From Nitrospirales bacterium (GTDB lineage Bacteria; Nitrospirota; Nitrospiria; Nitrospirales; UBA8639): a stretch of 64,000 bases of DNA. This document shows, piece by piece, positions 32,504 through 44,495 of the stretch (the stretch's first letter is position 1; each line of letters opens with the position of its first letter). Below the pieces are notes generated by a model that ran no database searches, was not told where the DNA came from, and saw only the letters and a program-made list of their open reading frames with translations. The position numbers and the translations under genes are program-made. Where the stretch lies: assembly GCA_029261355.1 (NCBI GenBank), contig JAJDBM010000049.1, forward strand, positions 62,001 through 126,000, written 5' to 3'.

Positions 32504-33589
32504 ATGATTGAACTCATCGACCAACTACTTGGCGCTCTTCCTCAAGTTATTCCCACGCTTGCCGTCATTACAATCGTTGTCATAGTTCTCTGGGCTGCAG
32601 ACTGGGCACTTCTGCGTCGGAGGGAAAATCTTGGAGAAGAAGCACGCTTTCCGAGAAGAATCGTCATGTTGGTTCTCACGGGAATTGGCCTCCTCCTTAT
32701 CTTTCTTGCCCTTCCTGTCAGTCCTGATACCCGAGGCCAACTGTTTGGCATCGTGGGATTGATCTTCAGCGCCATCATTGCCCTCTCATCAACAACCTTT
32801 GTGTCAAACGCCATGGCAGGGTTTATGCTTCGAGGCGTCCGAAGTTTTCGTCCCGGCGACTTCATTAAGGTGGGAGAACAGTTTGGACGCGTGACTGAAC
32901 GCGGACTCTTTCATACAGAGATCCAAACGGAAGATCGCGACTTAACTACGTTGCCAAATTTATTTTTAGTTTCCCACCCCATCACTGTCGTACATTCATC
33001 TGGCACCATTGTTTCTGCCTCGGTATCCCTCGGATATGACATCCCACATGAACGTATCGAACAGTTACTCAAAGAAGCGGCCATAGCAGCCAAGCTTCAA
33101 GAGCCATTTGTCCAAATTAAGGAACTTGGCGATTTCTCTGTTACCTATCGGATTGCAGGATTTCTCCCAGAGGTGAACCACCTGCTCACCACACGTTCAA
33201 AACTCCGAAAAATGATGCTCCGCTCTCTTCACGAAGCAGATGTTGAAATTGTCTCTCCAACATTCATGACCCAGCGCCGCGTGGAGGGAGGTGCACGCAC
33301 ATTGCCGCTGAAACCTTCCTTAAGGGGCCATCATAACATCCATCTTGAGGATGGCCTGCCAGAAGATCTCATTTTTGATAAAGCAGAGCAAAAAAAGAAA
33401 GGAGAGGAATTACGACGTGAATGCGAGGACCTCAGAATTAGCATCAATAACCTTAAAGCTTCTTGCAAAACGCCTGACCAAGATACCGCTGAAACCGCAC
33501 GGCTTCAACGTCAAATCTATCGTGCAACGACTCGAATTGATGCCATCACAAAATACTTAGCACTCGTTGAAAAAACAGATAAAGAATAA
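32504..33589 (+). CDS. Mechanosensitive ion channel (MscS family)
   Basis: 361 residues. Helices at about 10-30, 50-70 and 80-115 are followed by the pore helix/beta-domain signature: SSTTFVSNAMAGFMLRGVRS, then FRPGDFIKVGEQFGRVTERG, and TLPNLFLVSHPITVVHSSG. The channel opens on membrane tension to release osmolytes. After the MscS domain there is a coiled-coil C-terminal tail of about 70 residues (KKKGEELRRECEDLRISIN), not found in short MscS. Start ATG at 32504. Confidence 0.9.
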   Translation: MIELIDQLLGALPQVIPTLAVITIVVIVLWAADWALLRRRENLGEEARFPRRIVMLVLTGIGLLLIFLALPVSPDTRGQLFGIVGLIFSAIIALSSTTFVSNAMAGFMLRGVRSFRPGDFIKVGEQFGRVTERGLFHTEIQTEDRDLTTLPNLFLVSHPITVVHSSGTIVSASVSLGYDIPHERIEQLLKEAAIAAKLQEPFVQIKELGDFSVTYRIAGFLPEVNHLLTTRSKLRKMMLRSLHEADVEIVSPTFMTQRRVEGGARTLPLKPSLRGHHNIHLEDGLPEDLIFDKAEQKKKGEELRRECEDLRISINNLKASCKTPDQDTAETARLQRQIYRATTRIDAITKYLALVEKTDKE

Positions 33590-33814
33590 TTACCCCTTTG
33601 CTCAATATCCACTTTTCGCAACACTCTCTGCCTTACATGTGTAGAAACTGGTTGATGTGCAATCACCACCATCAATAAGTTATGATAATAAAAGCACGAG
33701 ATCTATTGATAGAAAATCTCAAATTGTGTGAATCCCCCCGCTTTTAGTACAGACTCCCTCATTCAAGCTTGCTTACAAGGCAAGAATATTGAACCCCAAA
33801 TCATGGAGGGAAAA

Positions 33815-34513
33815 ATGGACACATCAAACTCAGAAACAATATCTTCACGCTTTCAGCTTGGCGGGTTCAAGATACTAGGAATTATTGGCCTTGTGATCTT
33901 CGTCTCAGTTGTCCTAACCGCATGGTGGATGAATAAGAATATTTATGCCGCCCCCTTTACACCAACACAATTGACGACACCAGAGCAGCAAGTGCTTGAT
34001 GCCAAGATGGCTCAGCTAACAGATGAGCCCAAGCAACCTATTGATTCCACCGAGACAAAACCTACAGAGGCTCCCTCTTCTGGGCCATTGAACCCGGAAC
34101 CCTACTCTGAGGATGAGTCAAAAAGAGAAATTCATCTTTCTGAAAAAGAGCTCAACGCGCTGATAGCAAAAGACCCAGAAACAGCAAAATATGTGGCTGT
34201 GGACTTGGCCAAGGATCTTATCAGTGTGAAGTTATTAGTTCCGATGGACCAAGACCTCCCTTTGCTTGGCGGAAAAACACTAAAGCTCAACTTTGGAGTT
34301 GTCATCAAGTACAACAATCATAAACCTGTCGTTGCCATTCGAGGCATGAGCCTTGGTGGCGTACCACTCCCCCAATCATGGTGGGGCGATATAAAAAACG
34401 TGAATTTGGTCGAAACGTTTAGTGCCGAAGGAGGATTTTGGGATCAATTTTCAAAGGGGGTTGAGCATATTAGCGTGCATGAAGGTCAATTTCGAGTTAA
34501 ATTAAAAGAATAG
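33815..34513 (+). CDS. Membrane-anchored protein of unknown function
   Basis: About 232 residues: a short cytoplasmic start, one helix (ILGIIGLVIFVSVVLTAWWM), a Pro/Thr/Glu-rich linker, then a globular domain from about residue 105. The domain has LSEKELNALIAKDPETAKY, the hydrophobic LISVKLLVPMDQDLPLLGGK, and MSLGGVPLPQSWWG. I recognise the pattern as recurring in environmental Gram-negative genomes but know no function. Start chosen at the ATG at 33815 because GGAGGG lies four bases upstream; the frame opens earlier at 33728. Confidence 0.65.
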   Translation: MDTSNSETISSRFQLGGFKILGIIGLVIFVSVVLTAWWMNKNIYAAPFTPTQLTTPEQQVLDAKMAQLTDEPKQPIDSTETKPTEAPSSGPLNPEPYSEDESKREIHLSEKELNALIAKDPETAKYVAVDLAKDLISVKLLVPMDQDLPLLGGKTLKLNFGVVIKYNNHKPVVAIRGMSLGGVPLPQSWWGDIKNVNLVETFSAEGGFWDQFSKGVEHISVHEGQFRVKLKE

Positions 34514-34835
34514 TCTCCCACTTCCGCAAGGAATAATGATGAAGAACAGTCCAACACCAAGGCACTCAACAAAGTTCTCCCTAATGGTATATAATAGAGA
34601 TAGGAACAGGCCTTGTGAATTATCAACTGGTGACCATTAAAAACTATCGTTGTCTGCCTGAGTAACCACCTGCTTATGCTTTATTGGATTCTTCAGCCGT
34701 CTGTAAGATCTATACAAGCCGTCCAAATGCCACAGAGAAGGCATCTCCTTCAAACATCAGCAGTGCTAGTCATCGTCTATAGGTATTTGGCCTTTTTTCA
34801 CTCTCTACTTGTTCCAAATTTCAAGAAAGGCAGCC
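34514..34835. other. Non-coding region
   Basis: About 320 bases between two rightward genes; no supported gene or clear terminator. It may hold the promoter of the EcsC-like gene. Confidence 0.3.
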
Positions 34836-35672
34836 ATGACGCTTAGCGTAGAAGACCAAGAAGCACTTGAACGAGCATACAGCCTCCTCGAACATCCCAG
34901 CTTTGCCGCCAAGGTAACCAATATCATTGGAACACCAGTAGAAAAAGCCCTTTCGGTGTTACCAGATAACTGGTCAGACAAGTTGATGACCTCAACAAAA
35001 GGCGCCTTATCACGGGCACTCGACGTGGCTGTCGCCACAATGAATTATCAACATGCCGGAGAAGCTTCGAATACTGTACATAAGGTCTTCACATCGATTA
35101 GCGGAGCATTGGGTGGAGCATTTGGACTTGGAGGTCTCGCAGTAGAACTGCCGATCTCAACGACGATCATGCTTCGATCAATCGCGGACATTGCTCGAAG
35201 CGAAGGCGAAAATATTTTGGAGGTTGAAACAAAGCTCTCATGCCTTGAAGTCTTTGCACTAGGTGGACCGGCTCAAACCGACGATGGATCTGAAACAGGA
35301 TACTTTGCAGTCCGAACGGCACTGGGTGCGGCGGTCTCTGAAGCAGCCAAATATATAACTGAGCGAGGCATGGCAGAAACGGGAGCTCCTGGGCTCGTTC
35401 GACTCGTCACGCAAATCGCCTCACGCTACAGCATTCAGGTTTCCGAGAAGGCTGCCGCACAAGCCATCCCCATTATTGGCGCAGCTGGTGGTGCCACCGT
35501 CAATCTGCTGTTCATTAATCATTTTCAAGATGTCGCTCGTGGCCATTTCACCGTCAGACGACTTGAACGTACATACGATCCGGACACAATCAAGTCTGCG
35601 TATGAGGCCCTTGGCCTCATTGAACGACAGGCCAAGGAACAAACAGCCTCACAGTCTGACACCTCCCGTTAA
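34836..35672 (+). CDS. EcsC-family protein
   Basis: 278 residues. The EcsC family, named after a protein encoded with an ABC exporter in Bacillus, is of unknown function. Seen here: VEDQEALERAYSLLEHPSFA, the Gly-rich ISGALGGAFGLGGLAVELPI hydrophobic hairpin, then STTIMLRSIADIARSEGE, and VNLLFINHFQDVARGHFTVR at the C-terminus. Start at the ATG at 34836, after AAGAAAGG; the frame also opens at 34809. No ABC transporter is adjacent. Confidence 0.9.
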   Translation: MTLSVEDQEALERAYSLLEHPSFAAKVTNIIGTPVEKALSVLPDNWSDKLMTSTKGALSRALDVAVATMNYQHAGEASNTVHKVFTSISGALGGAFGLGGLAVELPISTTIMLRSIADIARSEGENILEVETKLSCLEVFALGGPAQTDDGSETGYFAVRTALGAAVSEAAKYITERGMAETGAPGLVRLVTQIASRYSIQVSEKAAAQAIPIIGAAGGATVNLLFINHFQDVARGHFTVRRLERTYDPDTIKSAYEALGLIERQAKEQTASQSDTSR

Positions 35673-35875
35673 CCCCTCGCTGCACAACAGATGGGCTCAA
35701 TTCCCAAATCATTAATCATATTTTGCTCCTGCATGCTTAGCCAGAAAAATGGACCAAGAATATATTGAGGTATTTCCAGGGTTTTGCGTGGGAAGACGTC
35801 GTGCAATACCAATGAATGTTTACGTATCGAATAGCGAATGTGACTAGTTCGGGTTTTTGTTAAAAGCCGATATGT

Positions 35876-36469
35876 CTAACGCCCGAAAGCGGCAATCCAC
35901 GGATCTTGATTTAATACCCACAGATAAAAAAATGTTCCCAGCCAGCCGTGGTATACGCCAAGCACCCAAAGGTTTCGATGTTGGAAGTAACACGGAATAA
36001 AGGCACATCCCATTATCCCAGTTGCCAACATCAACCATCCCTCGGGGAAATGGGCAACAGAAAAAAGGCAGGCCCCCAGCAATACAACGAATCCAAGACC
36101 AGCAGAAGGAAACAAATTCCTGAGATTGGCCACACCTAATGCCTGGACGAGAAACTGCTGCAGCACTCCCCACATCGGATACAACAGCAACAGAATGATA
36201 ATGTGCTCATTCCATAGATCACGTCCAAAAGTAATAGCAAACACAGCCATACTCACCATCGTTAGAAGAAACAAGATAGTGGGCCAAAACAGAGAAGCGT
36301 ACAAATTATCTACTCGAAATCCCCATCGTCTCCAAAGACCAGGGTTTTGCCACACCCTCCATCCGATATAAGTTCCCCAACTCACACTAGCTAGAGCAAT
36401 AAAAAATCCTTTGGCATCGAATGTCTGGAAGACGACATGAGACAGCCCAGTAACAACGACTGCTCCCAA
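35876..36469 (-). CDS. CPBP-like intramembrane protein without the EExxR motif
   Basis: 197 residues with five to six helices. The end resembles the CPBP/Abi membrane protease family: FSVAHFPEGWLM, then a later GVYHGWLGT with the two His. The helix that normally carries EExxR reads PMWGVLQQFLVQALGVAN, so the glutamates are replaced by Gln and protease activity is doubtful. The start is unclear. A TTG at 36469 opens the frame. Upstream the frame continues to a TAA, beyond which an ATG runs in the same frame (MEMLSQWKGL). A nonsense or frameshift change at the N-terminus is possible. Confidence 0.6.
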   Translation of the reverse strand: MGAVVVTGLSHVVFQTFDAKGFFIALASVSWGTYIGWRVWQNPGLWRRWGFRVDNLYASLFWPTILFLLTMVSMAVFAITFGRDLWNEHIIILLLLYPMWGVLQQFLVQALGVANLRNLFPSAGLGFVVLLGACLFSVAHFPEGWLMLATGIMGCAFIPCYFQHRNLWVLGVYHGWLGTFFYLWVLNQDPWIAAFGR

Positions 36470-37187
36470 TTCAATGGCTGAGCGAAAATTCTTCAGTTCT
36501 TACAATCCCTTCCATTGACTCAACATTTCCATAAATCATTTTAATCCTTTCGATCTTCGAGACGAAAGCAATAATATGGATCATCTTTCATATTAGAAAT
36601 AACATAGGAACACATAGTCCCAACACCAATCAAAAAACAACATGGATTCGACATTCAAGGAGTTTCATTGGCATCCACCCCTACACCAAGGTTAATTGAA
36701 TCGCACACGTGTTTAAATATGAAATATTTATAAATAAATATCTTTTGAATCTTTCTTTTTCTCACCATTGAACAACCCTCTCTTTTACGAAAAAATCCAG
36801 ACCAGATTTTGCGATGACACAAGACCTGGTCTGCCCGATAAGACGACTCATTTTTCTTCGCTTCACACATCGTCAATATGCAGTTGCGTTGATGCTCCAA
36901 AGGAAAATTACTTGAGGCCTTCCCAGGCAATGGAAAACCTACAGGCTTCAAAATCATGATCCCACGAACCCAGTGCCTCTCACCACCATAAGGCGTAGCA
37001 CAGAAATAGAAAAGAGAACGGTTCACCGCCCTGTCTGATCACTTTCGATGTCTGAATCCATGTGACGGTATCGTCTTCATAGACCTCGACGAAAGAAAGA
37101 GCGAGGGCTTGGGAAAAAGAATCAAATACATAGGACGCTCCCTTAACACCAGCAGCTCCTCGTATGTTCCAATATCGCAGAGGAACG
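36470..37187. other. Mostly non-coding, possibly decayed coding region
   Basis: About 720 bases with no intact gene. On the minus strand two open stretches in different frames read like protein: one near 37000-37230 (SYVFDSFSQALALSFVEVY) and one near 36655-37026 (TPYGGERHWVRGIMILKP). Neither has a good start. They could be a frameshifted gene, but the evidence is only readability. The 36530-36650 part is AT-rich and shows nothing. Confidence 0.3.
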
Positions 37188-37301
37188 CTACAATGTGTGT
37201 GCCTTTGAGGATCGTCGAACTCCTCCTAGACCATTATCTCTTGGGTGAATACATAAGGATCGAATTTTTGTATAGTCATGTTCACGATAAATTCGCATCA
37301 T
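37188..37301 (-). CDS. Possible small protein (37 residues) behind a strong ribosome-binding site
   Basis: AAGGAGATAT lies directly before an ATG at 37301, only 30 bases after the stop of the Cys-rich gene. The frame is 37 codons (starts MMRIYREHDYTKIRS, ends SSKAHTL). The protein is basic with no known family. Because the next 200 bases stay open in other frames, it may be the start of a frameshifted longer gene. The ribosome-binding site and position suggest it was, or is, translated with the cluster. Confidence 0.4.
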   Translation of the reverse strand: MMRIYREHDYTKIRSLCIHPRDNGLGGVRRSSKAHTL

Positions 37302-37331
37302 ATATCTCCTTCCAATATTTTCTTTCTTAAG

Positions 37332-37694
37332 TTAGTCTTTGCAACAAAGTTTTTTCTTGCCCGTCGCACAAGTCGCTCCACCATCTCCATCTTTACTTTC
37401 AGCAGTCACATCTTCATTCTTTTGACATTTAGCATTGCAGAGCGGGGCCTTTCCTCGCCAGGTACAGATACTGTTCAAACAGCACTTCACCTTTGTCCCA
37501 GTGGTGCATTTCTTAGAACCTGCTGGCCCCTGCTTGTTTCTCTCACCAACTGTTTCACCTGGCTGACAAGATCCATTACAGAAAGGGGCTTGACCTCTCC
37601 ATTGACAGGGCCCATCAGCAAAGACAGTGGTCGGAACCATAAACCCAACAGCGAATAAACAAGAAAACATGACAGATGTGAGCATTGCTCTCAT
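37332..37694 (-). CDS. Exported protein with two tandem six-cysteine domains
   Basis: 120 residues. A signal peptide (about 1-26, ending VFADG) precedes two copies of one small domain. Copy 1 starts CQWRGQAPFCNGSC and ends KCTTGTKVKCC. Copy 2 starts CTWRGKAPLCNAKC and ends TCATGKKKLCC. Each has six Cys in the order C...C...C...C...CC, so twelve in the mature protein, suggesting three disulfides per domain. The WRGxAPxCN core recalls small disulfide-rich domains of secreted proteins, but I cannot name the family. A perfect ribosome-binding site (AAGGAGGTAGATCA) precedes the ATG at 37694. A DsbA-family gene lies upstream in the same direction and could form the disulfides. Confidence 0.8.
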   Translation of the reverse strand: MRAMLTSVMFSCLFAVGFMVPTTVFADGPCQWRGQAPFCNGSCQPGETVGERNKQGPAGSKKCTTGTKVKCCLNSICTWRGKAPLCNAKCQKNEDVTAESKDGDGGATCATGKKKLCCKD

Positions 37695-37812
37695 TGATCT
37701 ACCTCCTTATAAATAAATTGGATCATGACCAGAACCACGGGATGAATCCTCACATCACCCCACGTCTTGTTGCACCCTCAATACAAGAGTTTTTTTGACT
37801 TAACAAAACTTT

Positions 37813-38574
37813 CTAACAGAGCACTCCACTCATCGGATCATCACATGGATTACCATCCCCTGGAGGACTCCAGACATCCGATGATGTTGGATTTTTCTTG
37901 AAGAGCTTTCCTAGCCAGCTACCGATCCCTCGGCCTATCTGGCCACCGATATATCCACCGCCAATGCCCCCTGATAAGAATCCAATTCCTGAACCAACCA
38001 CCGTACCAATCACCTCCCCTCTCCCTTGCGCCGTCGACATCGGCCCACCACCCGTCAGCACAATCACCCCCTTCGTCCTGACACTTGAATGCAAGGCATG
38101 TCCGAGGTCCCGAGTCTGCAAGAGGGTTTTAGCAAGTTCCTTTGCTGCGGGAGAGGTCGCATGTTGGGAAAATTTGGTGATTTGATTTCTGGCTTTTTTC
38201 AACTCCCCGTTAAAGAAAGACATCATTATTTGATCTACATATTTTTTCTCATTCTGAGTTAACACCTTCTGTGACACCAAACGCGCTGTGAACGCATGAA
38301 AATACTTAATTCGCTTCTGAGACGTTGAGACCAAAAGTTTGAGCACATCATCTTCTACTTCTGAATAAAATGATTTTCTTAACTTGTTTTTTCTTACTTC
38401 GGTTTCGTACGTTGCTCTAAAGGCTCCATATCCGCTTATCTTCCTCACAGACGTTCTCGCCTTCTCATACTCCCCCTTGTTATAGCCTTGAACATTCAAC
38501 AGGCTTGAGGCGAACCCCACAACTGGAAATGAAAAGAAACAGAAGAAAAGCAAGCTGGTCATCATGAGTTTCAT
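37813..38574 (-). CDS. Exported protein with a glycine-zipper C-terminal region
   Basis: About 253 residues. A signal peptide (MKLMMTSLLFFCFFSFPVVG...) is followed by a mostly helical, Lys/Arg-rich region (about 40-165). A glycine zipper then follows: GEVIGTVVGSGIGFLSGGIG continuing into GGYIGGQIGRGIGSWLG. Such segments insert into membranes in several pore-forming or outer-membrane proteins and bacteriocins. The extreme C-terminus has two Cys (NPCDDPMSGVLC). I chose the ATG at 38574 because GGAGGCAGATCC sits just upstream; five codons further up, another ATG overlaps that site. It lies 38 bases after the DsbA-family gene. Function unknown. Confidence 0.7.
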   Translation of the reverse strand: MKLMMTSLLFFCFFSFPVVGFASSLLNVQGYNKGEYEKARTSVRKISGYGAFRATYETEVRKNKLRKSFYSEVEDDVLKLLVSTSQKRIKYFHAFTARLVSQKVLTQNEKKYVDQIMMSFFNGELKKARNQITKFSQHATSPAAKELAKTLLQTRDLGHALHSSVRTKGVIVLTGGGPMSTAQGRGEVIGTVVGSGIGFLSGGIGGGYIGGQIGRGIGSWLGKLFKKNPTSSDVWSPPGDGNPCDDPMSGVLC

Positions 38575-38612
38575 TGGATCTGCCTCCATCTAGGTATTCG
38601 ACATACACTTCA

Positions 38613-39560
38613 TTACGGTTGGGATACTGCTGCAAGTCTGTCTCCTTTAGATTGCTGTATAAACAAACGAATAATTTCTTCGAATTTTTCCTTAGGTTGA
38701 CTCCCCATGAGTGAAACTCCATTAATCAAGAAAGCCGGTGTCCCATCAAACCCAAATCGTCCCGTTTCGTCACGATCGAGACGAAGACGCTGCTCAATCG
38801 CTTCTCCATACAGATCGCGTTTCACCTTCGTCACATCCACATTCAACGACTCCAGAATCACCTTCAACACCTGTTCTCCGTCGGCAAGCTGATCCTGCTG
38901 TTCAAACACACGATCGTGAAAATGCCAAGCCTGCTCCACATCTTGCATGGCAATCGCCTCAAAGTACCTGGCCGCAGGTTCAGCCATAGGATGAAAATTC
39001 AATGGATTGTGCTTGTACACAAATCGGACAGCCTCTCCATACTGTTCCAAGACTTCCTTCACCGTCGTGGAAGCAGAGCGACAATAGGGACATTCAAAAT
39101 CGCTGTATTCCACAATGGTGATCATCGCCTCAGGATTTCCTCGCATTGGACGATCCGCATGAATCATAGGAACCTTTGGCTGTTTCATTTCAGCAAGCCG
39201 TCGGTCTTTTTCAGCTTGCACGTCTTTTAATACGGAGGCTTGTTCGACAAGTTCTACTAATTCAATTTGTTTTTTTGCCAATGCTTCAATAATGAACTCA
39301 GGGTGTTCGACAAGTACAGATTCCAAAGCCATAATCTGGTCAGCACGCGACAACTTGTCTGTCGAAGAATGCAAACAAGAATTTTCACCATCCCCCCTCA
39401 ACATGACATGCTCGTCCTCAGTTCGTTGTTCAGACGATTCAATAATCTGAAGTTCCTCGGCTAAGACATTTCCCGAGAGAATTGGGGTTCCAATATTCAA
39501 TGCAATCGAGGCGCCTACCAAGAAAAACGGCAACATAAACGAACTTTTTCTACGCTTCAT
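38613..39560 (-). CDS. DsbA-family thioredoxin-like thiol oxidoreductase
   Basis: 315 residues. A signal/anchor helix (FMLPFFLVGASIALNIGTPI) and a linker of about 110 residues with helical EALAKKQIELVELVEQ precede a DsbA-type thioredoxin domain. Its active site is EYSDFECPYCRSAST, and the cis-Pro loop is FGFDGTPAFLINGV. The layout resembles the Com1/BdbD/ScsC-like group that oxidises or isomerises disulfides in the envelope. A strong ribosome-binding site (GAAGGAGGTCAAAA) precedes the ATG at 39560. It is the first of three genes, followed by the glycine-zipper and Cys-rich proteins, its likely clients. Confidence 0.9.
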   Translation of the reverse strand: MKRRKSSFMLPFFLVGASIALNIGTPILSGNVLAEELQIIESSEQRTEDEHVMLRGDGENSCLHSSTDKLSRADQIMALESVLVEHPEFIIEALAKKQIELVELVEQASVLKDVQAEKDRRLAEMKQPKVPMIHADRPMRGNPEAMITIVEYSDFECPYCRSASTTVKEVLEQYGEAVRFVYKHNPLNFHPMAEPAARYFEAIAMQDVEQAWHFHDRVFEQQDQLADGEQVLKVILESLNVDVTKVKRDLYGEAIEQRLRLDRDETGRFGFDGTPAFLINGVSLMGSQPKEKFEEIIRLFIQQSKGDRLAAVSQP

Positions 39561-39834
39561 TTTTGACCTCCTTCCTGATTCAAATTTCCCGATACTATCT
39601 CAAACATGACTTGATAAACTTTCGGCAATCTGTCACTCAACGGTTCATGCTTCTTTCCCCAATGTTGTTACATTTGAAATGTCGCATGACTAACAGATGA
39701 ATTCCATAGTCAATTTCACATGTCGTATTTTGGCGTTTTGCCAATTACGATGTTTTAAGCAAATCCAAGAGATGGGGAATACAAGTAGAAGGGAATCGAA
39801 TATTCAGGAAACACGAAGGGAGAATAGAAGGTAT

Positions 39835-41082
39835 TTACGCCACGCTCTGTAAGCGCGAGGCGAGTTCGCTGCGGGAAGAGACTTCGAGTTTGCGAAAGAT
39901 GGATTGCACTTGGTTGGCCACGGTACGGTCGCTGGTATTCCGACGTTGAGCGATATCATCATTAGTCGAGCCGGCCACAAGGTGTGCAAGAACCGCACGC
40001 TCAGCTTCGGTGAGCATGTCTACATGACGTTCATCTATTAAGGGATAGGCCCCAACAAGAAGGTCTTCCCCTACGAGTGACACCTCAGCCAATTTTGCAC
40101 GGAGCCCGCTTTGAGCAAAAAAGGCCGCCAGCTCCGCACGAGACGCCAGCCCTAATTTTATTTGTGCGCTTGCGGTACAATTGGTCACAGCTGAATGTGA
40201 GACTCCCAGCGTATAACTAATTTCTTTACTGGATTGCCCCATGCCCGCAAACTCGGCGATTTGCCGTTCACGTGTCGTCAAACCTCGAGGGTCAGGAAAT
40301 AGCGGATCATTCTTAATGGCAACGACAAACCGTCGCTGATCAGTATCAAAGTGGTCGACAAGGGACCAGCGGCCATGTACGAGTCCCTCCCAAGCTGTCA
40401 TCGCAGCATCAGGATCCTTTCTGCCTTCACGAGTGCGAATCCGATCTATCCGTTTCACCGCATCGCGTAAGAGGTCACGGGCAGACGATTCCCTTGCGTC
40501 TTCTCGTGCATCACGTAACTTTCCTCCAGGATCAAAAATTGCTTCAACAGATTCCGTGTCGAGGGTTAACGATTCAGCGACAGCTCGTAGTCGCACACCT
40601 GCCCCTAAATGACTGGCGATAAGCGGCCATCGCTTACGCTCCAATGCGGTTGCAGAAGTAGGCTTAAAGAGTCCCATCGAAATACAGATGCCACCTCCCG
40701 ACCCAGACTGCGCGACAAAGGCTAAATTGTCTCCAATCAAGCCCCTTGTCACCCGGCGAAAGACATCTTGTTGTTCCGGAAGTTTGTGAAACACCGAACT
40801 TGCTGTGCCAACAAAGTTTCCACTTCGTAGAAGAACATCTATAAGCTTAGGAGAAAGAGTTTCAAGGCTTTTTGTGGCTTTTTTAATGATAAACGCTGGA
40901 CCACGTACTGCAATCTCTTCGACGTGAAACGTTTCAGGTGAATAATGAAAGACGAAACAGTTCGGCCACCATCCTCTGATAATCGGTGACGCAGCATCAA
41001 GAACTTCATTAACCCATGAATCATGACTTCCTTCAAGGCTATATCCAGCCTCAATGACCGAGATCCAATCTTTAACTTTCAT
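39835..41082 (-). CDS. Transcription regulator with two LuxR-type HTH domains
   Basis: 415 residues. The N-terminal 240 or so residues are an unassigned sensory region. A LuxR/GerE HTH follows around residues 265-325 (LTTRERQIAEFAGMGQSSKE, then ISYTLGVSHSAV). A second one lies at about 350-412 (LTEAERAVLAHLVAGSTNDD, then IAQRRNTSDRTVANQVQSIF). Both keep the helix-turn-helix pattern, though the second lacks the usual Gly in the turn. It lies 274 bases upstream of the DsbA-family gene in the same direction and may regulate it; that is inference. By eye the gene is more GC-rich than its neighbours. Start ATG at 41082 without a strong ribosome-binding site. Confidence 0.85.
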   Translation of the reverse strand: MKVKDWISVIEAGYSLEGSHDSWVNEVLDAASPIIRGWWPNCFVFHYSPETFHVEEIAVRGPAFIIKKATKSLETLSPKLIDVLLRSGNFVGTASSVFHKLPEQQDVFRRVTRGLIGDNLAFVAQSGSGGGICISMGLFKPTSATALERKRWPLIASHLGAGVRLRAVAESLTLDTESVEAIFDPGGKLRDAREDARESSARDLLRDAVKRIDRIRTREGRKDPDAAMTAWEGLVHGRWSLVDHFDTDQRRFVVAIKNDPLFPDPRGLTTRERQIAEFAGMGQSSKEISYTLGVSHSAVTNCTASAQIKLGLASRAELAAFFAQSGLRAKLAEVSLVGEDLLVGAYPLIDERHVDMLTEAERAVLAHLVAGSTNDDIAQRRNTSDRTVANQVQSIFRKLEVSSRSELASRLQSVA

Positions 41083-41256
41083 CTTATGTACTCACTAATT
41101 CCCTAGAGCTGAAACCTATGATCACCCAGCATCTATTAGCGTGAGGTATCTTACAAGTAATGGGAGAGCACAGCTACGCCTCAATATTATGCCTCCGTCA
41201 ATCGCTAAATAAGTTAAGTATTTTCAATTATATATTTACTCCTATAACCTTTAACT

Positions 41257-41285
41257 TGACTCCCCATGGAGTCTTTACTAGACTA
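41257..41285 (+). promoter_or_regulatory. Probable ffh promoter with an inverted repeat in the spacer
   Basis: TTGACT (41257-41262) and TAGACT (41280-41285) are 17 bases apart, 44 bases before the ffh start. Overlapping the -35 end and the spacer, GACTCC-CCAT-GGAGTC (41259-41274) is a perfect six-base inverted repeat. It could be an operator or a chance palindrome. Confidence 0.5.
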
Positions 41286-41328
41286 GCTCTTTTGGTAGTT
41301 ACAAAAGAGGGGATAGGATCGTAATTTT

Positions 41329-42714
41329 ATGTTTGGCTCGTTAACAGAAAAAATTGATAATGTTTTCAAGCAGTTACGAGGCCAAGCTGTTCTGTCAGAA
41401 CAGAATATCACTGATGCATTAAAAGAAGTTCGACTAGCCTTATTAGAGGCGGACGTCAACTTTAAGATTGTTAAGGATTTTATTGAGCGAATTCGTGAAA
41501 AGGCGATAGGGCAAGAAGTCTTCAAAGGACTAAATCCGGCCCAACAAGTTGTCAAGATAGTCTGGGAAGAACTCCGTGATCTGTTAGGAAAAGATCATGC
41601 AGAGCTCCACCTCTCTTCTTCCCCACCCACCATTATCATGATGGTCGGCCTCCAAGGTTCAGGAAAAACCACAACCACAGGAAAACTCGCAAGCCATTTC
41701 AAAACTCAAGGTAAACGAGTACTGCTTGTCGCTGCTGACCCTCGTCGTCCAGCTGCAGGCGAACAATTAGCGTCCTTAGGACAAGAGCTTGAAGTTCTGG
41801 TTCATCGTGGGGACCAGGAAGGCAAACCTAACGCGAATGCGGTCCAAACATGTCGGGATGGTGTCTCTCGGGCCAAAGAACATGGCTATGAGGTGGTGAT
41901 TCTTGATACCGGCGGACGCCTACAGATCGATGAAGAACTCATGCAGGAACTCGTCGATATTAAACAGTCTGTGAGTCCGCAAGAAACCCTCCTTGTGGCT
42001 GACTCCATGACAGGGCAAGAGGCCGTCTCCGTTGCCGAACGCTTTGATCAAGTCGTTGGCCTTGATGGGGTGATCCTCACCAAAGTTGAAGGCGATGCAC
42101 GCGGCGGGGCAGTTCTTTCCATTCGATCAGCCACGGGCAAGCCCATTAAATTCCTTGGGGTTGGTGAAAAACTCGATGCCCTTGAACCCTTCTATCCAGA
42201 TCGGATGGCTTCCAGAATTTTGGGAATGGGTGATGTGCTCACCCTCATTGAAAAAGCTCAGGAAAACTTTTCTCAAGAAGAGGCTGAGACACTTCAACGA
42301 AAGGTTTCGAGTAATACTCTCACGCTTGAAGATTTCCGTGATCAGATTCAACAAGTCAATAAAATGGGATCACTCGACCAAATCTTGGATATGTTACCTG
42401 GAGGTCAAAAGATCAAATCCATGGTGGCCAATGCAGGGCCAGGTGCGGGTCTCCCAGAGAAAGAAATTAAACGCGTTGTCGCGATCATTGACTCCATGAC
42501 GCGAAAAGAACGGCGTGATCACACGATTATTAATGGGAATCGTAAAAAACGAATCTCACGAGGAAGCGGAACCTCCGTTCAAGAAGTCAATCGCCTCATT
42601 AAACAATTTTTAGAAGCACGACGAATGATGAAAACCCTAGTGGGGGGACGTATGGGGAAAATGGGAAAAGGGAAAAAACGGAAGAAGTTAGTCCGAGTCC
42701 TTCAATCCCCTTAA
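41329..42714 (+). CDS. ffh: Signal recognition particle protein Ffh
   Basis: GTPase that binds 4.5S RNA and signal peptides of nascent membrane proteins. N domain (about 1-90, FGSLTEKIDNVFKQLRG), then the G domain with GLQGSGKTTTTGKLA, DTGGRLQ and TKVEGDARGG. The methionine-rich M domain runs from about 330, with RRDHTIINGNRKKRI and GGRMGKMGKGKKRKK at the end. Length 461 residues is typical. It is the first gene of a ribosome/RNA block. Confidence 0.98.
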   Translation: MFGSLTEKIDNVFKQLRGQAVLSEQNITDALKEVRLALLEADVNFKIVKDFIERIREKAIGQEVFKGLNPAQQVVKIVWEELRDLLGKDHAELHLSSSPPTIIMMVGLQGSGKTTTTGKLASHFKTQGKRVLLVAADPRRPAAGEQLASLGQELEVLVHRGDQEGKPNANAVQTCRDGVSRAKEHGYEVVILDTGGRLQIDEELMQELVDIKQSVSPQETLLVADSMTGQEAVSVAERFDQVVGLDGVILTKVEGDARGGAVLSIRSATGKPIKFLGVGEKLDALEPFYPDRMASRILGMGDVLTLIEKAQENFSQEEAETLQRKVSSNTLTLEDFRDQIQQVNKMGSLDQILDMLPGGQKIKSMVANAGPGAGLPEKEIKRVVAIIDSMTRKERRDHTIINGNRKKRISRGSGTSVQEVNRLIKQFLEARRMMKTLVGGRMGKMGKGKKRKKLVRVLQSP

Positions 42715-42791
42715 TTCGCGCAATACATTATTTACGTTGAAGATTATAGTCTTGTATTTTTTTCGATCACATTTAACAAGGAGAGTACACA

Positions 42792-43076
42792 GTGGCAGTT
42801 CATTTACGGTTAACCCGTGTGGGACGGCATAAACACCCAATTTATCGAGTCGTCGCGGCAGATGCACGTATGCGTCGTGATGGTCGCTTCCTCGAAGTAA
42901 TCGGCACCTATAATCCATTGAAAGAATCAGACAAAGCCGTGTTCAAGGAAGACCGAGTTCTTGATTGGCTCAAACGAGGTGCGAAGCCAACTGATCCGGT
43001 TCGAGCCCTGCTTCGAAAAACCGGCGTCATGAAAGCCCTTGCGGAATCAAGGAAGGAAGCAACGCCAGCATCCTAA
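42792..43076 (+). CDS. rpsP: 30S ribosomal protein S16
   Basis: 94 residues, beginning AVHLRLTRVGRHKHPIYRVV and containing GRFLEVIGTYNPL, both hallmarks of S16. The start is a GTG at 42792 preceded by AAGGAG. The C-terminal 20 residues are a short basic/Ala tail. It is followed by rimM, trmD and rplS in the order usual for bacteria. Confidence 0.98.
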   Translation: MAVHLRLTRVGRHKHPIYRVVAADARMRRDGRFLEVIGTYNPLKESDKAVFKEDRVLDWLKRGAKPTDPVRALLRKTGVMKALAESRKEATPAS

Positions 43077-43195
43077 CCCGTAGCAACATTTTGACACATT
43101 CGAAGAATAGCCTAACTGGGATCCCTGTGAAGTTACCGGTGGGGCACATATACTATATTGACTCAAATGAGATCTCTGATAGCACGACATTCAGT

Positions 43196-43726
43196 ATGCA
43201 GGTTATGACAGATTCCGTCACCATAGGACGTCTACTCAAACCGTTTGGAATAAAGGGTGAAATCCGCGTTGAATCATTAACGGACATTCCTGGGTGCTTT
43301 GAGGATCTTCCATCTGTGTCCTTACTCACTCCCACAGGACATCTGCTCAAAACGGAGATCACCCAGGTCAGGCAATCTGGCCGCTTTTATCTCCTGAGTT
43401 TTTCAGCATTTTCCTCACCGGAAGAAGCCACCGCCTATCGAGGCGCACTTATTCAAATACCTCAAGAGTCAGTTCCGCCTTCTTCCGCTGACCAGTTCTA
43501 TGAATTTGAACTCATAGGAATGACCGTCCGCGATGAATTCAACCGTGATCTTGGCTGCATAGAAGAAATCATGGATCTCCCACAACACCATGTTTTTGTC
43601 GTTCGGCAAGCAGGCACAGAATATCTGATACCTGCCACTCGGAAGGTCGTCAAGCAGATTGACCGAGCCAATAAATTGATGACGGTAGAGCCAACTGAGC
43701 AATGGGGCATTCCCGATGCAGTGTGA
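43196..43726 (+). CDS. rimM: Ribosome maturation factor RimM
   Basis: About 176 residues. RimM binds S19 and helps assemble the 30S head. It has the N-terminal barrel (TIGRLLKPFGIKGEIRVESL) and the PRC-barrel (FYEFELIGMTVRDE, DLPQHHVFVV, EYLIPATRKVVKQID). I place the start at the ATG at 43196 (MQVMTDSV), with 43205 as an alternative; the frame opens 35 codons earlier at 43091 in sequence foreign to the family. Its end overlaps trmD by 11 bases. Confidence 0.94.
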   Translation: MQVMTDSVTIGRLLKPFGIKGEIRVESLTDIPGCFEDLPSVSLLTPTGHLLKTEITQVRQSGRFYLLSFSAFSSPEEATAYRGALIQIPQESVPPSSADQFYEFELIGMTVRDEFNRDLGCIEEIMDLPQHHVFVVRQAGTEYLIPATRKVVKQIDRANKLMTVEPTEQWGIPDAV

Positions 43727-44495
43727 CGTACTCACGCTTTTCCCAGATAGTATTCAATCGGTGACGTCTCAAAGCATCGTCAAACGTGCCCAAGAAAAGG
43801 GGTTGCTTCATCTAGCTATCCATAATATCCGAGACTATGCCGATGCCCCACATTACAACGCCGATGATACCCCTTACGGAGGGGGAGAAGGCATGGTCAT
43901 GAAAGCCGAGCCAATTTTTCGAGCGATTGATCACATCCGAGAGCAAAGCGACAACCTTCGAATCATCCTCCCGTCACCACAAGGCATACCTTTCAGCCAT
44001 CAGCAGGCAGAAGCCTTGAGCTGCGAATCCAGAAGAGTCATCTTTATTTGTGGCCATTATGAAGGCATTGATGAACGGGTTCGAACTCAGCTTCTTGCTG
44101 AAGAGCTTTCTATTGGGGATTACGTCTTAACGGGTGGTGAATTACCGGCCATGGTCATGATTGATGCAGCCGTGCGCCTCATCCCTGGTGTTTTAGGAGA
44201 CCCGCTATCTGCTCAACATGACTCCTTCGCCGGATCTCTGTTAGATTACCCTCATTACACCAGACCAAGTGAGATTCGTGGGGCAGCTATTCCCCAAGTC
44301 CTTGCATCAGGAAACCATGAAGCTATCAGACGTTGGCGTCGGAAGGAGTCCTTGCGGAGTACATTGTTAAAGAGACCAGATTTACTCAGCCATCAAACAT
44401 TGTCTCATGAAGATCAAACGTTTTTGAACGAAATATTAGAAGAACAACCCAGTGAAGTTTGTTGCAGTCAGAGGCAGGAAGGAGCCGAAAGATGA
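43716..44495 (+). CDS. trmD: tRNA (guanine-N1)-methyltransferase TrmD
   Basis: Methylates G37 of tRNA with AdoMet; a SPOUT knot enzyme. It starts [13 protein letters not shown] and carries [31 protein letters not shown] and the knot motif [20 protein letters not shown]. Length 259 residues, slightly longer than average; the last residues ([11 protein letters not shown]) are variable. It overlaps rimM (11 bases) and rplS (ATGA at 44492-44495). Confidence 0.97.

What the first reader, a model, noticed from the sequence alone, without database searches (positions are those of the whole stretch)
37188..39560. DsbA-family oxidoreductase with two exported small proteins: candidate secreted disulfide-rich system
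Three genes, each with a strong ribosome-binding site, encode a DsbA-like oxidase, an exported glycine-zipper protein with C-terminal Cys pair, and an exported protein with two six-Cys domains. The strong sites and spacing (38 and 118 bases) suggest co-expression. The Cys-rich protein needs disulfides, and the glycine zipper suggests membrane insertion, so a bacteriocin-, toxin- or surface-type role is possible. I know of no described system with this set. A short ORF with its own strong site follows.
Basis: partly seen in the sequence, partly recalled or inferred. Interest (0 to 1): 0.65.

Follow-up and report, generated by a model that had tools for sequence, protein, structure and literature searches.

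The report
Disulfide enzyme with swappable secreted cargo
In some Nitrospirales bacteria, one distinct disulfide-forming enzyme always sits beside genes for exported, cysteine-rich proteins, but those neighbours differ from species to species, so the window probably holds one version of a locus that keeps its folding enzyme while its secreted cargo changes.

Summary
Three minus-strand genes with strong ribosome-binding sites, 38 and 118 bases apart, encode a DsbA-family enzyme, an exported glycine-rich protein ending in a Cys pair, and an exported protein with two six-Cys repeats. The exact trio is not conserved: both small proteins are orphans in about 300-400 phylum genomes. The enzyme, however, belongs to a distinct clade found in 8 of 235 Nitrospirales genomes. 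In all 8 it lies beside exported Cys-rich genes: two six-Cys repeats in the window, and HExxH or M23 peptidase-like proteins with Dickkopf-like Cys modules (26-43 Cys) in the other seven. Only 7 of 58 other DsbA-family loci in related genomes have such a neighbour. One same-genus relative has the enzyme at the same chromosomal site with different Cys-rich neighbours. A double-HTH LuxR-type regulator lies directly upstream in the window and four others. Most likely this is a locus-dedicated oxidase/isomerase (ScsC/DsbA2-like N-terminal stalk; a VKOR-thioredoxin is encoded elsewhere) that folds an exchangeable set of secreted disulfide-rich proteins. A bacteriocin or toxin role is not supported. 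The cargo's function is untested. Locus-dedicated DsbAs are known elsewhere, so this is a new variant of a known kind.

The parts
38613..39560 (-). DsbA-family thiol-disulfide enzyme, exported, with N-terminal extension (stalk) before the CPYC thioredoxin domain
   Evidence: Pfam Thioredoxin_4 3.5e-20, DSBA 8.7e-20; sub-threshold ScsC_N in all 8 orthologues, 8e-5 to 0.033; clade support 100/99
37813..38574 (-). Exported helical protein with Gly-rich hydrophobic segment and C-terminal Cys pair; orphan
   Evidence: ORF and SD; no homologue in 58 relatives or 294 phylum genomes or in plasmids; Gly-zipper_Omp 0.044 sub-threshold; AF2 pLDDT 47, N-terminal part helical
37332..37694 (-). Exported protein of two six-Cys repeats (C-x-W-x-G-x-A-P-x-C-...-C-...-C-x-x-G-x-K-x-x-C-C)
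   Evidence: repeats aligned; same domain twice in Cupriavidus KK10 protein with BTRD1 repeats and once in a viral-contig ricin-B lectin; no Pfam/NCBIfam family
39835..41082 (-). LuxR-type regulator with two HTH regions, directly upstream of dsbA, same orientation (274-base gap); probable regulator of the locus
   Evidence: GerE 2e-23, 2 stretches; orthologue (52% identical in G142) directly upstream of dsbA in four f3 genomes
37188..37301 (-). 37-aa ORF with strong SD; coding status doubtful
   Evidence: sequence; adjoins pseudogene
36851..36999 (-). Remnant (frameshift and stops) of an exported 252-aa protein whose intact homologue lies directly upstream of dsbA in same-genus genome G001
   Evidence: tblastn 3.1e-6 and 1.5e-9 in the narrower search

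Best explanation
The locus is a locus-dedicated periplasmic disulfide-folding unit with exchangeable clients. A LuxR-type regulator probably switches it on; a DsbA-family enzyme with an N-terminal oligomerisation-type stalk is exported and makes and/or shuffles disulfides in the Cys-rich proteins encoded just downstream, which then act outside the cytoplasm. In this genome the clients are a Gly-zipper helical protein with one Cys pair and a double six-Cys protein; in relatives they are HExxH and M23 peptidase-like proteins with Dickkopf-like Cys modules. The enzyme is probably recharged by the VKOR-thioredoxin fusion encoded elsewhere. Shown: gene content, export signals by heuristic, clade, recurrent linkage, synteny with changed neighbours. 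Inferred: co-transcription, regulation by LuxR, enzyme-client specificity, VKOR partnership, oxidase versus isomerase mode, extracellular role of the cargo.
For: The dsbA orthologues form one clade (100/99) apart from 40 other DsbA-family rows. Found in 8/235 Nitrospirales genomes. All 8 have an exported Cys-rich neighbour, 7 of them as the first downstream gene and the window as the second; controls 7/58, Fisher p 1e-6 (orthologues not independent). The Cys-rich neighbours have no CXXCH motif, so they are not cytochromes. In G001 the site is the same (ffh-rpsP-rimM-trmD on one side, CAAX protease and EcsC on the other) but the neighbours differ. Neighbours in the f3 genomes are Pfam Dickkopf_N plus M12/M43-, M23- and M66-like. 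The HExxH-Cys protein also sits beside a different DsbA-family gene in G136 and G237, with the LuxR regulator upstream in G136. LuxR regulator directly upstream of dsbA in 5 of 8 loci. VKOR-Trx in own genome.
Against: Five of the eight orthologues are from one genus and share ancestry. The two window-specific client genes have no homologues beside other dsbA copies. Seven control DsbA loci of other clades also have exported Cys-rich neighbours, so the tendency is wider than this clade. Linkage to LuxR is absent in G001, G003 and G397, and G002 and others keep the regulator without this dsbA. No transcript or biochemical data.
Confidence: 0.62

Rival explanations
1. Loose clustering: the DsbA serves the whole envelope, and exported Cys-rich genes gather near dsbA genes in these genomes without enzyme-client specificity; the two small proteins are simply lineage-specific exported orphans inserted at a variable site.
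For: Both small proteins are orphans. DsbA genes of other clades also have Cys-rich neighbours in G018, G012, G022 and own contig C74. The site is variable and contains a decayed gene.
Against: 8/8 against 7/58 and presence in two families with different neighbours argue for a functional link. The genome has at least three other DsbA-family genes and a VKOR-Trx, so a general oxidase need not be this one.
Confidence: 0.25
2. A variant of the best explanation on mode of action: the enzyme is mainly a disulfide isomerase (ScsC / Legionella DsbA2 / Wolbachia alpha-DsbA2 type) kept reduced by a DsbD-type donor, correcting the many disulfides of its neighbours, rather than an oxidase. Its confidence is not exclusive of the best explanation.
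For: N-terminal extension between signal peptide and catalytic domain, aligned in all 8 orthologues, with a sub-threshold ScsC_N match in every one; profile matches to PDB 4xvw and 7rgv include part of the extension. DsbA-like enzymes with such extensions are oligomeric isomerases (PMC6450060, PMC5524982). Clients with 12-43 Cys would need isomerisation.
Against: ScsC_N never passes its curated cut-off; oligomerisation and redox potential not testable here; no DsbD search was made.
Confidence: 0.4
3. Bacteriocin or toxin system: the Gly-zipper protein is membrane-active and the six-Cys protein a toxin or partner, with DsbA for maturation (as in sublancin or PedC/BrcD systems).
For: Gly-zipper segment and C-terminal Cys loop; DsbA-type genes occur in bacteriocin loci (known); NCBIfam PedC_BrcD only at 0.17, not significant.
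Against: No peptidase-ABC exporter or immunity gene recognised in the reading of the surrounding ORFs; orthologous loci carry large peptidase-like proteins instead; Sec-type signal peptides; the Gly-zipper protein is 253 aa.
Confidence: 0.07

Closest known systems
DsbL/DsbI of uropathogenic E. coli and Salmonella (PMC6067686: an extra pair that may be dedicated to specific substrates; its link to arylsulfate sulfotransferase AssT is from general knowledge)
   Same: An extra DsbA homologue probably dedicated to locus-linked exported client(s), beside a general system
   Different: Here no DsbB/DsbI-type gene was recognised next to it, a VKOR-Trx is elsewhere; clients are Cys-rich and differ between genomes; the LuxR regulator and the N-terminal stalk are extra
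ScsC, Legionella DsbA2, Wolbachia alpha-DsbA2 (DsbA-like isomerases with N-terminal oligomerisation extension; PMC5524982, PMC6450060)
   Same: DsbA-like catalytic domain preceded by an N-terminal extension of tens of residues
   Different: No copper-resistance Scs genes noticed beside it; ScsC_N match below cut-off; oligomeric state untested
NCBIfam NF041057 Rcas_1661 family thioredoxin-like (seleno)lipoprotein
   Same: Best NCBIfam match over the catalytic domain (1.6e-20)
   Different: 73.8 bits against a cut-off of 190; not a member
BdbA/BdbB in the sublancin cluster of Bacillus (PMC4336743, PMC6391423 found by search, not read in full; the role of BdbB is from general knowledge)
   Same: Thiol-disulfide enzyme encoded in the locus of its small exported Cys client
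   Different: No ABC exporter, glycosyltransferase or immunity gene recognised here; clients carry Sec-type signal peptides

Membership tests
DsbA-family thiol-disulfide oxidoreductase | Thioredoxin fold of DsbA type, by profile above curated cut-off | tested here: met
   DSBA 71.8 bits vs 25.6; Thioredoxin_4 73.3 vs 23.2
DsbA-family thiol-disulfide oxidoreductase | CXXC active site and cis-Pro loop, export signal | tested here: met
   CP[YF]C and GTP in all 8 orthologues; signal peptide by inspection
DsbA-family thiol-disulfide oxidoreductase | Net oxidase activity and reoxidation by DsbB/VKOR | not testable with these tools
   VKOR-Trx fusion present in genome, no activity data
ScsC-type isomerase | ScsC_N stalk domain above curated cut-off | tested here: not met
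   14.4-22.7 bits vs 25.8 in eight orthologues, always in the stalk
ScsC-type isomerase | Trimer or dimer with isomerase activity | not testable with these tools
   needs purified protein
Glycine-zipper outer-membrane family (Pfam Gly-zipper_Omp) | profile match above cut-off | tested here: not met
   14.1 bits vs 25
Bacteriocin cluster with disulfide maturation (PedC/BrcD, sublancin) | PedC/BrcD-type thioredoxin above cut-off | tested here: not met
   TIGR01295 11.8 bits vs 120
Bacteriocin cluster with disulfide maturation (PedC/BrcD, sublancin) | ABC exporter or immunity gene beside the precursor | tested here: inconclusive
   none recognised among ORFs at 33000-44000 read by eye; only five to seven proteins scanned with Pfam/NCBIfam
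Locus-dedicated DsbA with linked clients (DsbL-AssT like) | recurrent genomic linkage of one DsbA clade with exported disulfide-rich genes | tested here: met
   8/8 vs 7/58 controls
Locus-dedicated DsbA with linked clients (DsbL-AssT like) | client requires that enzyme rather than the general one | not testable with these tools
   needs deletion or reconstitution

The most novel reading that the evidence does not exclude
Nitrospirales carry a regulator plus DsbA cassette that acts as a fixed folding module into which different secreted disulfide-rich proteins (peptidase-like proteins with Dickkopf-like modules, double six-Cys proteins, Gly-zipper proteins) are exchanged, a pattern of conserved foldase with variable cargo that I did not find described.
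Probability: 0.45. Interest if true: 0.65.

Novelty: new variant of a known kind. Interest (0 to 1): 0.5.

Why it matters
Nitrospirales include nitrite oxidisers important in marine and engineered systems, and their secreted proteins are poorly known. A dedicated foldase marks which exported Cys-rich orphans are real, linked and worth expressing, gives a handle (dsbA clade plus LuxR regulator) for finding more, and offers a natural set in which to test how one disulfide enzyme accommodates unrelated clients.

Tried and rejected
Family look-ups for the two small proteins: no Pfam/NCBIfam family, no PDB relative for the Cys protein or the Cys-domain profile. AlphaFold without alignment gave unusable models (Cys protein pLDDT 41, Gly-zipper 47), so the Foldseek search of the latter (no hit at E 0.001) means nothing. 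Weak hits of the Cys protein in relatives (E 4e-4 to 0.01, mostly with internal stops) rejected as chance. A first control run with minus-strand loci left unoriented was wrong and was repeated. The automatic Cys-rich count missed the window's own gene because a longer antisense ORF masked it; counted by hand. Heme cytochromes as confounder rejected: no CXXCH in the neighbours. The Desulfonatronaceae DsbA (36% identical, L036) has no Cys-rich neighbour in the stretch held. Promoter/terminator scan not above shuffles. Literature searches for Nitrospira DsbA with Cys-rich proteins found nothing.

Full report
Setting. The window is G000:C49:62001-126000 of a 4.63 Mb genome.

What is there. On the minus strand: LuxR-type regulator 41082-39835; dsbA 39560-38613; Gly-zipper protein 38574-37813; Cys-rich protein 37694-37332; a 37-aa ORF 37301-37188; and a decayed gene around 37000-36850. 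The Cys-rich protein consists of two repeats with all six Cys aligned, 45% identical.

Are the small proteins known? No Pfam or NCBIfam family covers them. The Gly-zipper protein has no homologue in 58 relatives, in 294 other genomes sampled from the phylum, or in plasmids. The Cys-rich protein has no convincing one in 58 relatives, and none at E 1e-5 in 394 other genomes of the phylum. Its repeat does occur elsewhere: twice at the start of a 400-aa exported Cupriavidus protein followed by BTRD1 repeats, and once in a viral-contig protein that ends in a ricin-B lectin. It thus looks like a small secreted module used beside binding or structural domains; thirteen positions, six of them Cys, are invariant in five copies.

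The enzyme. It is a DsbA-family protein by Pfam, far below the NCBIfam cut-offs for named subfamilies. Eight orthologues exist in 235 Nitrospirales genomes: three in the window's genus and five in one genus of another family. They form one clade with 100/99 support against 40 other DsbA-family rows. All share an N-terminal extension before the catalytic domain with a weak, sub-threshold ScsC_N match; DsbA-like enzymes with such extensions are oligomeric isomerases in other bacteria (PMC6450060; PMC5524982, abstract).

Linkage. In G001 the orthologue lies at the same chromosomal site as in the window, between ffh-rpsP-rimM-trmD and the CAAX protease/EcsC genes, but 42 bases downstream is a 334-aa exported HExxH protein with 27 Cys, and upstream are other exported proteins. 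In G003 the orthologue is elsewhere in the genome, flanked by a 17-Cys exported protein and two relatives of the same HExxH protein. In the five other genomes it is followed by one to three exported proteins with 27-43 Cys; those scanned carry Dickkopf_N-like modules with M12/M43-like, M23 or M66-like domains. So 8/8 loci have an exported Cys-rich neighbour. Among 58 other DsbA-family loci, from the relatives outside the three genomes with the orthologue, 7 have one within 4 kb (Fisher p 1e-6). That p-value overstates the case because the orthologues share ancestry; the stronger point is that the neighbours differ between G000, G001/G003 and the f3 genomes while the enzyme stays.

The reverse association. 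Relatives of the HExxH-Cys protein occur in G136 and G237 next to a different (CGFC) DsbA-family gene, in G136 with the LuxR regulator just upstream. In G018, G012 and G022 yet another DsbA clade is followed by large Cys-rich proteins (beta-lactamase-like plus Dickkopf_N, 52 Cys, in G018), and the window's own genome has an 827-aa, 40-Cys PAN-domain protein just upstream of another DsbA-family gene. Pairing of DsbA-type genes with exported Cys-rich proteins is therefore a broader habit of this order.

Regulation. The LuxR-type protein with two HTH regions is found in 11/235 genomes. It lies directly upstream of this dsbA in the window and in G142, G298, G363 and G368 (52% identity to that of G142). 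G002 has it at the same ffh-side site without dsbA. That it controls dsbA is inference.

Mechanism proposed. Sec export of enzyme and clients; disulfide formation or isomerisation in the periplasm by the linked enzyme; recharging by the VKOR-thioredoxin fusion encoded on contig C38, or reduction by an unknown donor if it acts as isomerase; clients then act at or beyond the cell surface. Only the gene arrangement is shown.

Verdict. It is a new variant of a known kind, the locus-dedicated DsbA.

Limits. Signal peptides were judged by a simple heuristic. Several genomes are drafts. Genomes were sampled one per species. No expression or biochemical evidence exists. Absence statements for exporter and immunity genes rest on reading ORFs at 33000-44000, not on a full annotation.

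Noticed in passing
window 36851-36999 (-), possibly further upstream to about 37180: Decayed remnant of an exported 252-aa protein that is intact directly upstream of dsbA in G001 (L033:8174-8932); shows gene turnover at this site.
   Followed up: partly
window 37188-37301 (-): 37-aa ORF with strong SD sequence; no homologue sought separately, may be a remnant start.
   Followed up: partly
L073 (G000:C74:61000-72000): Another DsbA-family gene of the own genome with an 827-aa, 40-Cys exported PAN-domain protein just upstream.
   Followed up: partly
L116:1402-2280 (G000:C38): VKOR fused to a thioredoxin-like domain, likely reoxidant of the DsbA proteins.
   Followed up: partly
L179:2797-3582 and L032:4992-6194: The six-Cys repeat of the window occurs N-terminal to a ricin-B lectin in a viral contig (beside a tail tape-measure-like ORF) and to BTRD1 repeats in Cupriavidus; apparently an unnamed secreted domain.
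   Followed up: partly
L068, L069, L070 upstream of dsbA: In f3 genomes the LuxR gene is preceded by an ECF-type sigma factor, a short Cys-containing anti-sigma-like protein (in some) and a 568-aa exported protein.
   Followed up: no
L115/L144/L148 (G018, G012): A different DsbA clade followed by 728-793 aa exported proteins with 52-60 Cys (beta-lactamase-like plus Dickkopf_N in G018).
   Followed up: partly
L034:8608-9159: 183-aa exported protein with 17 Cys in a charged Lys/Arg-rich repeat, upstream of dsbA in G003; no Pfam family.
   Followed up: no
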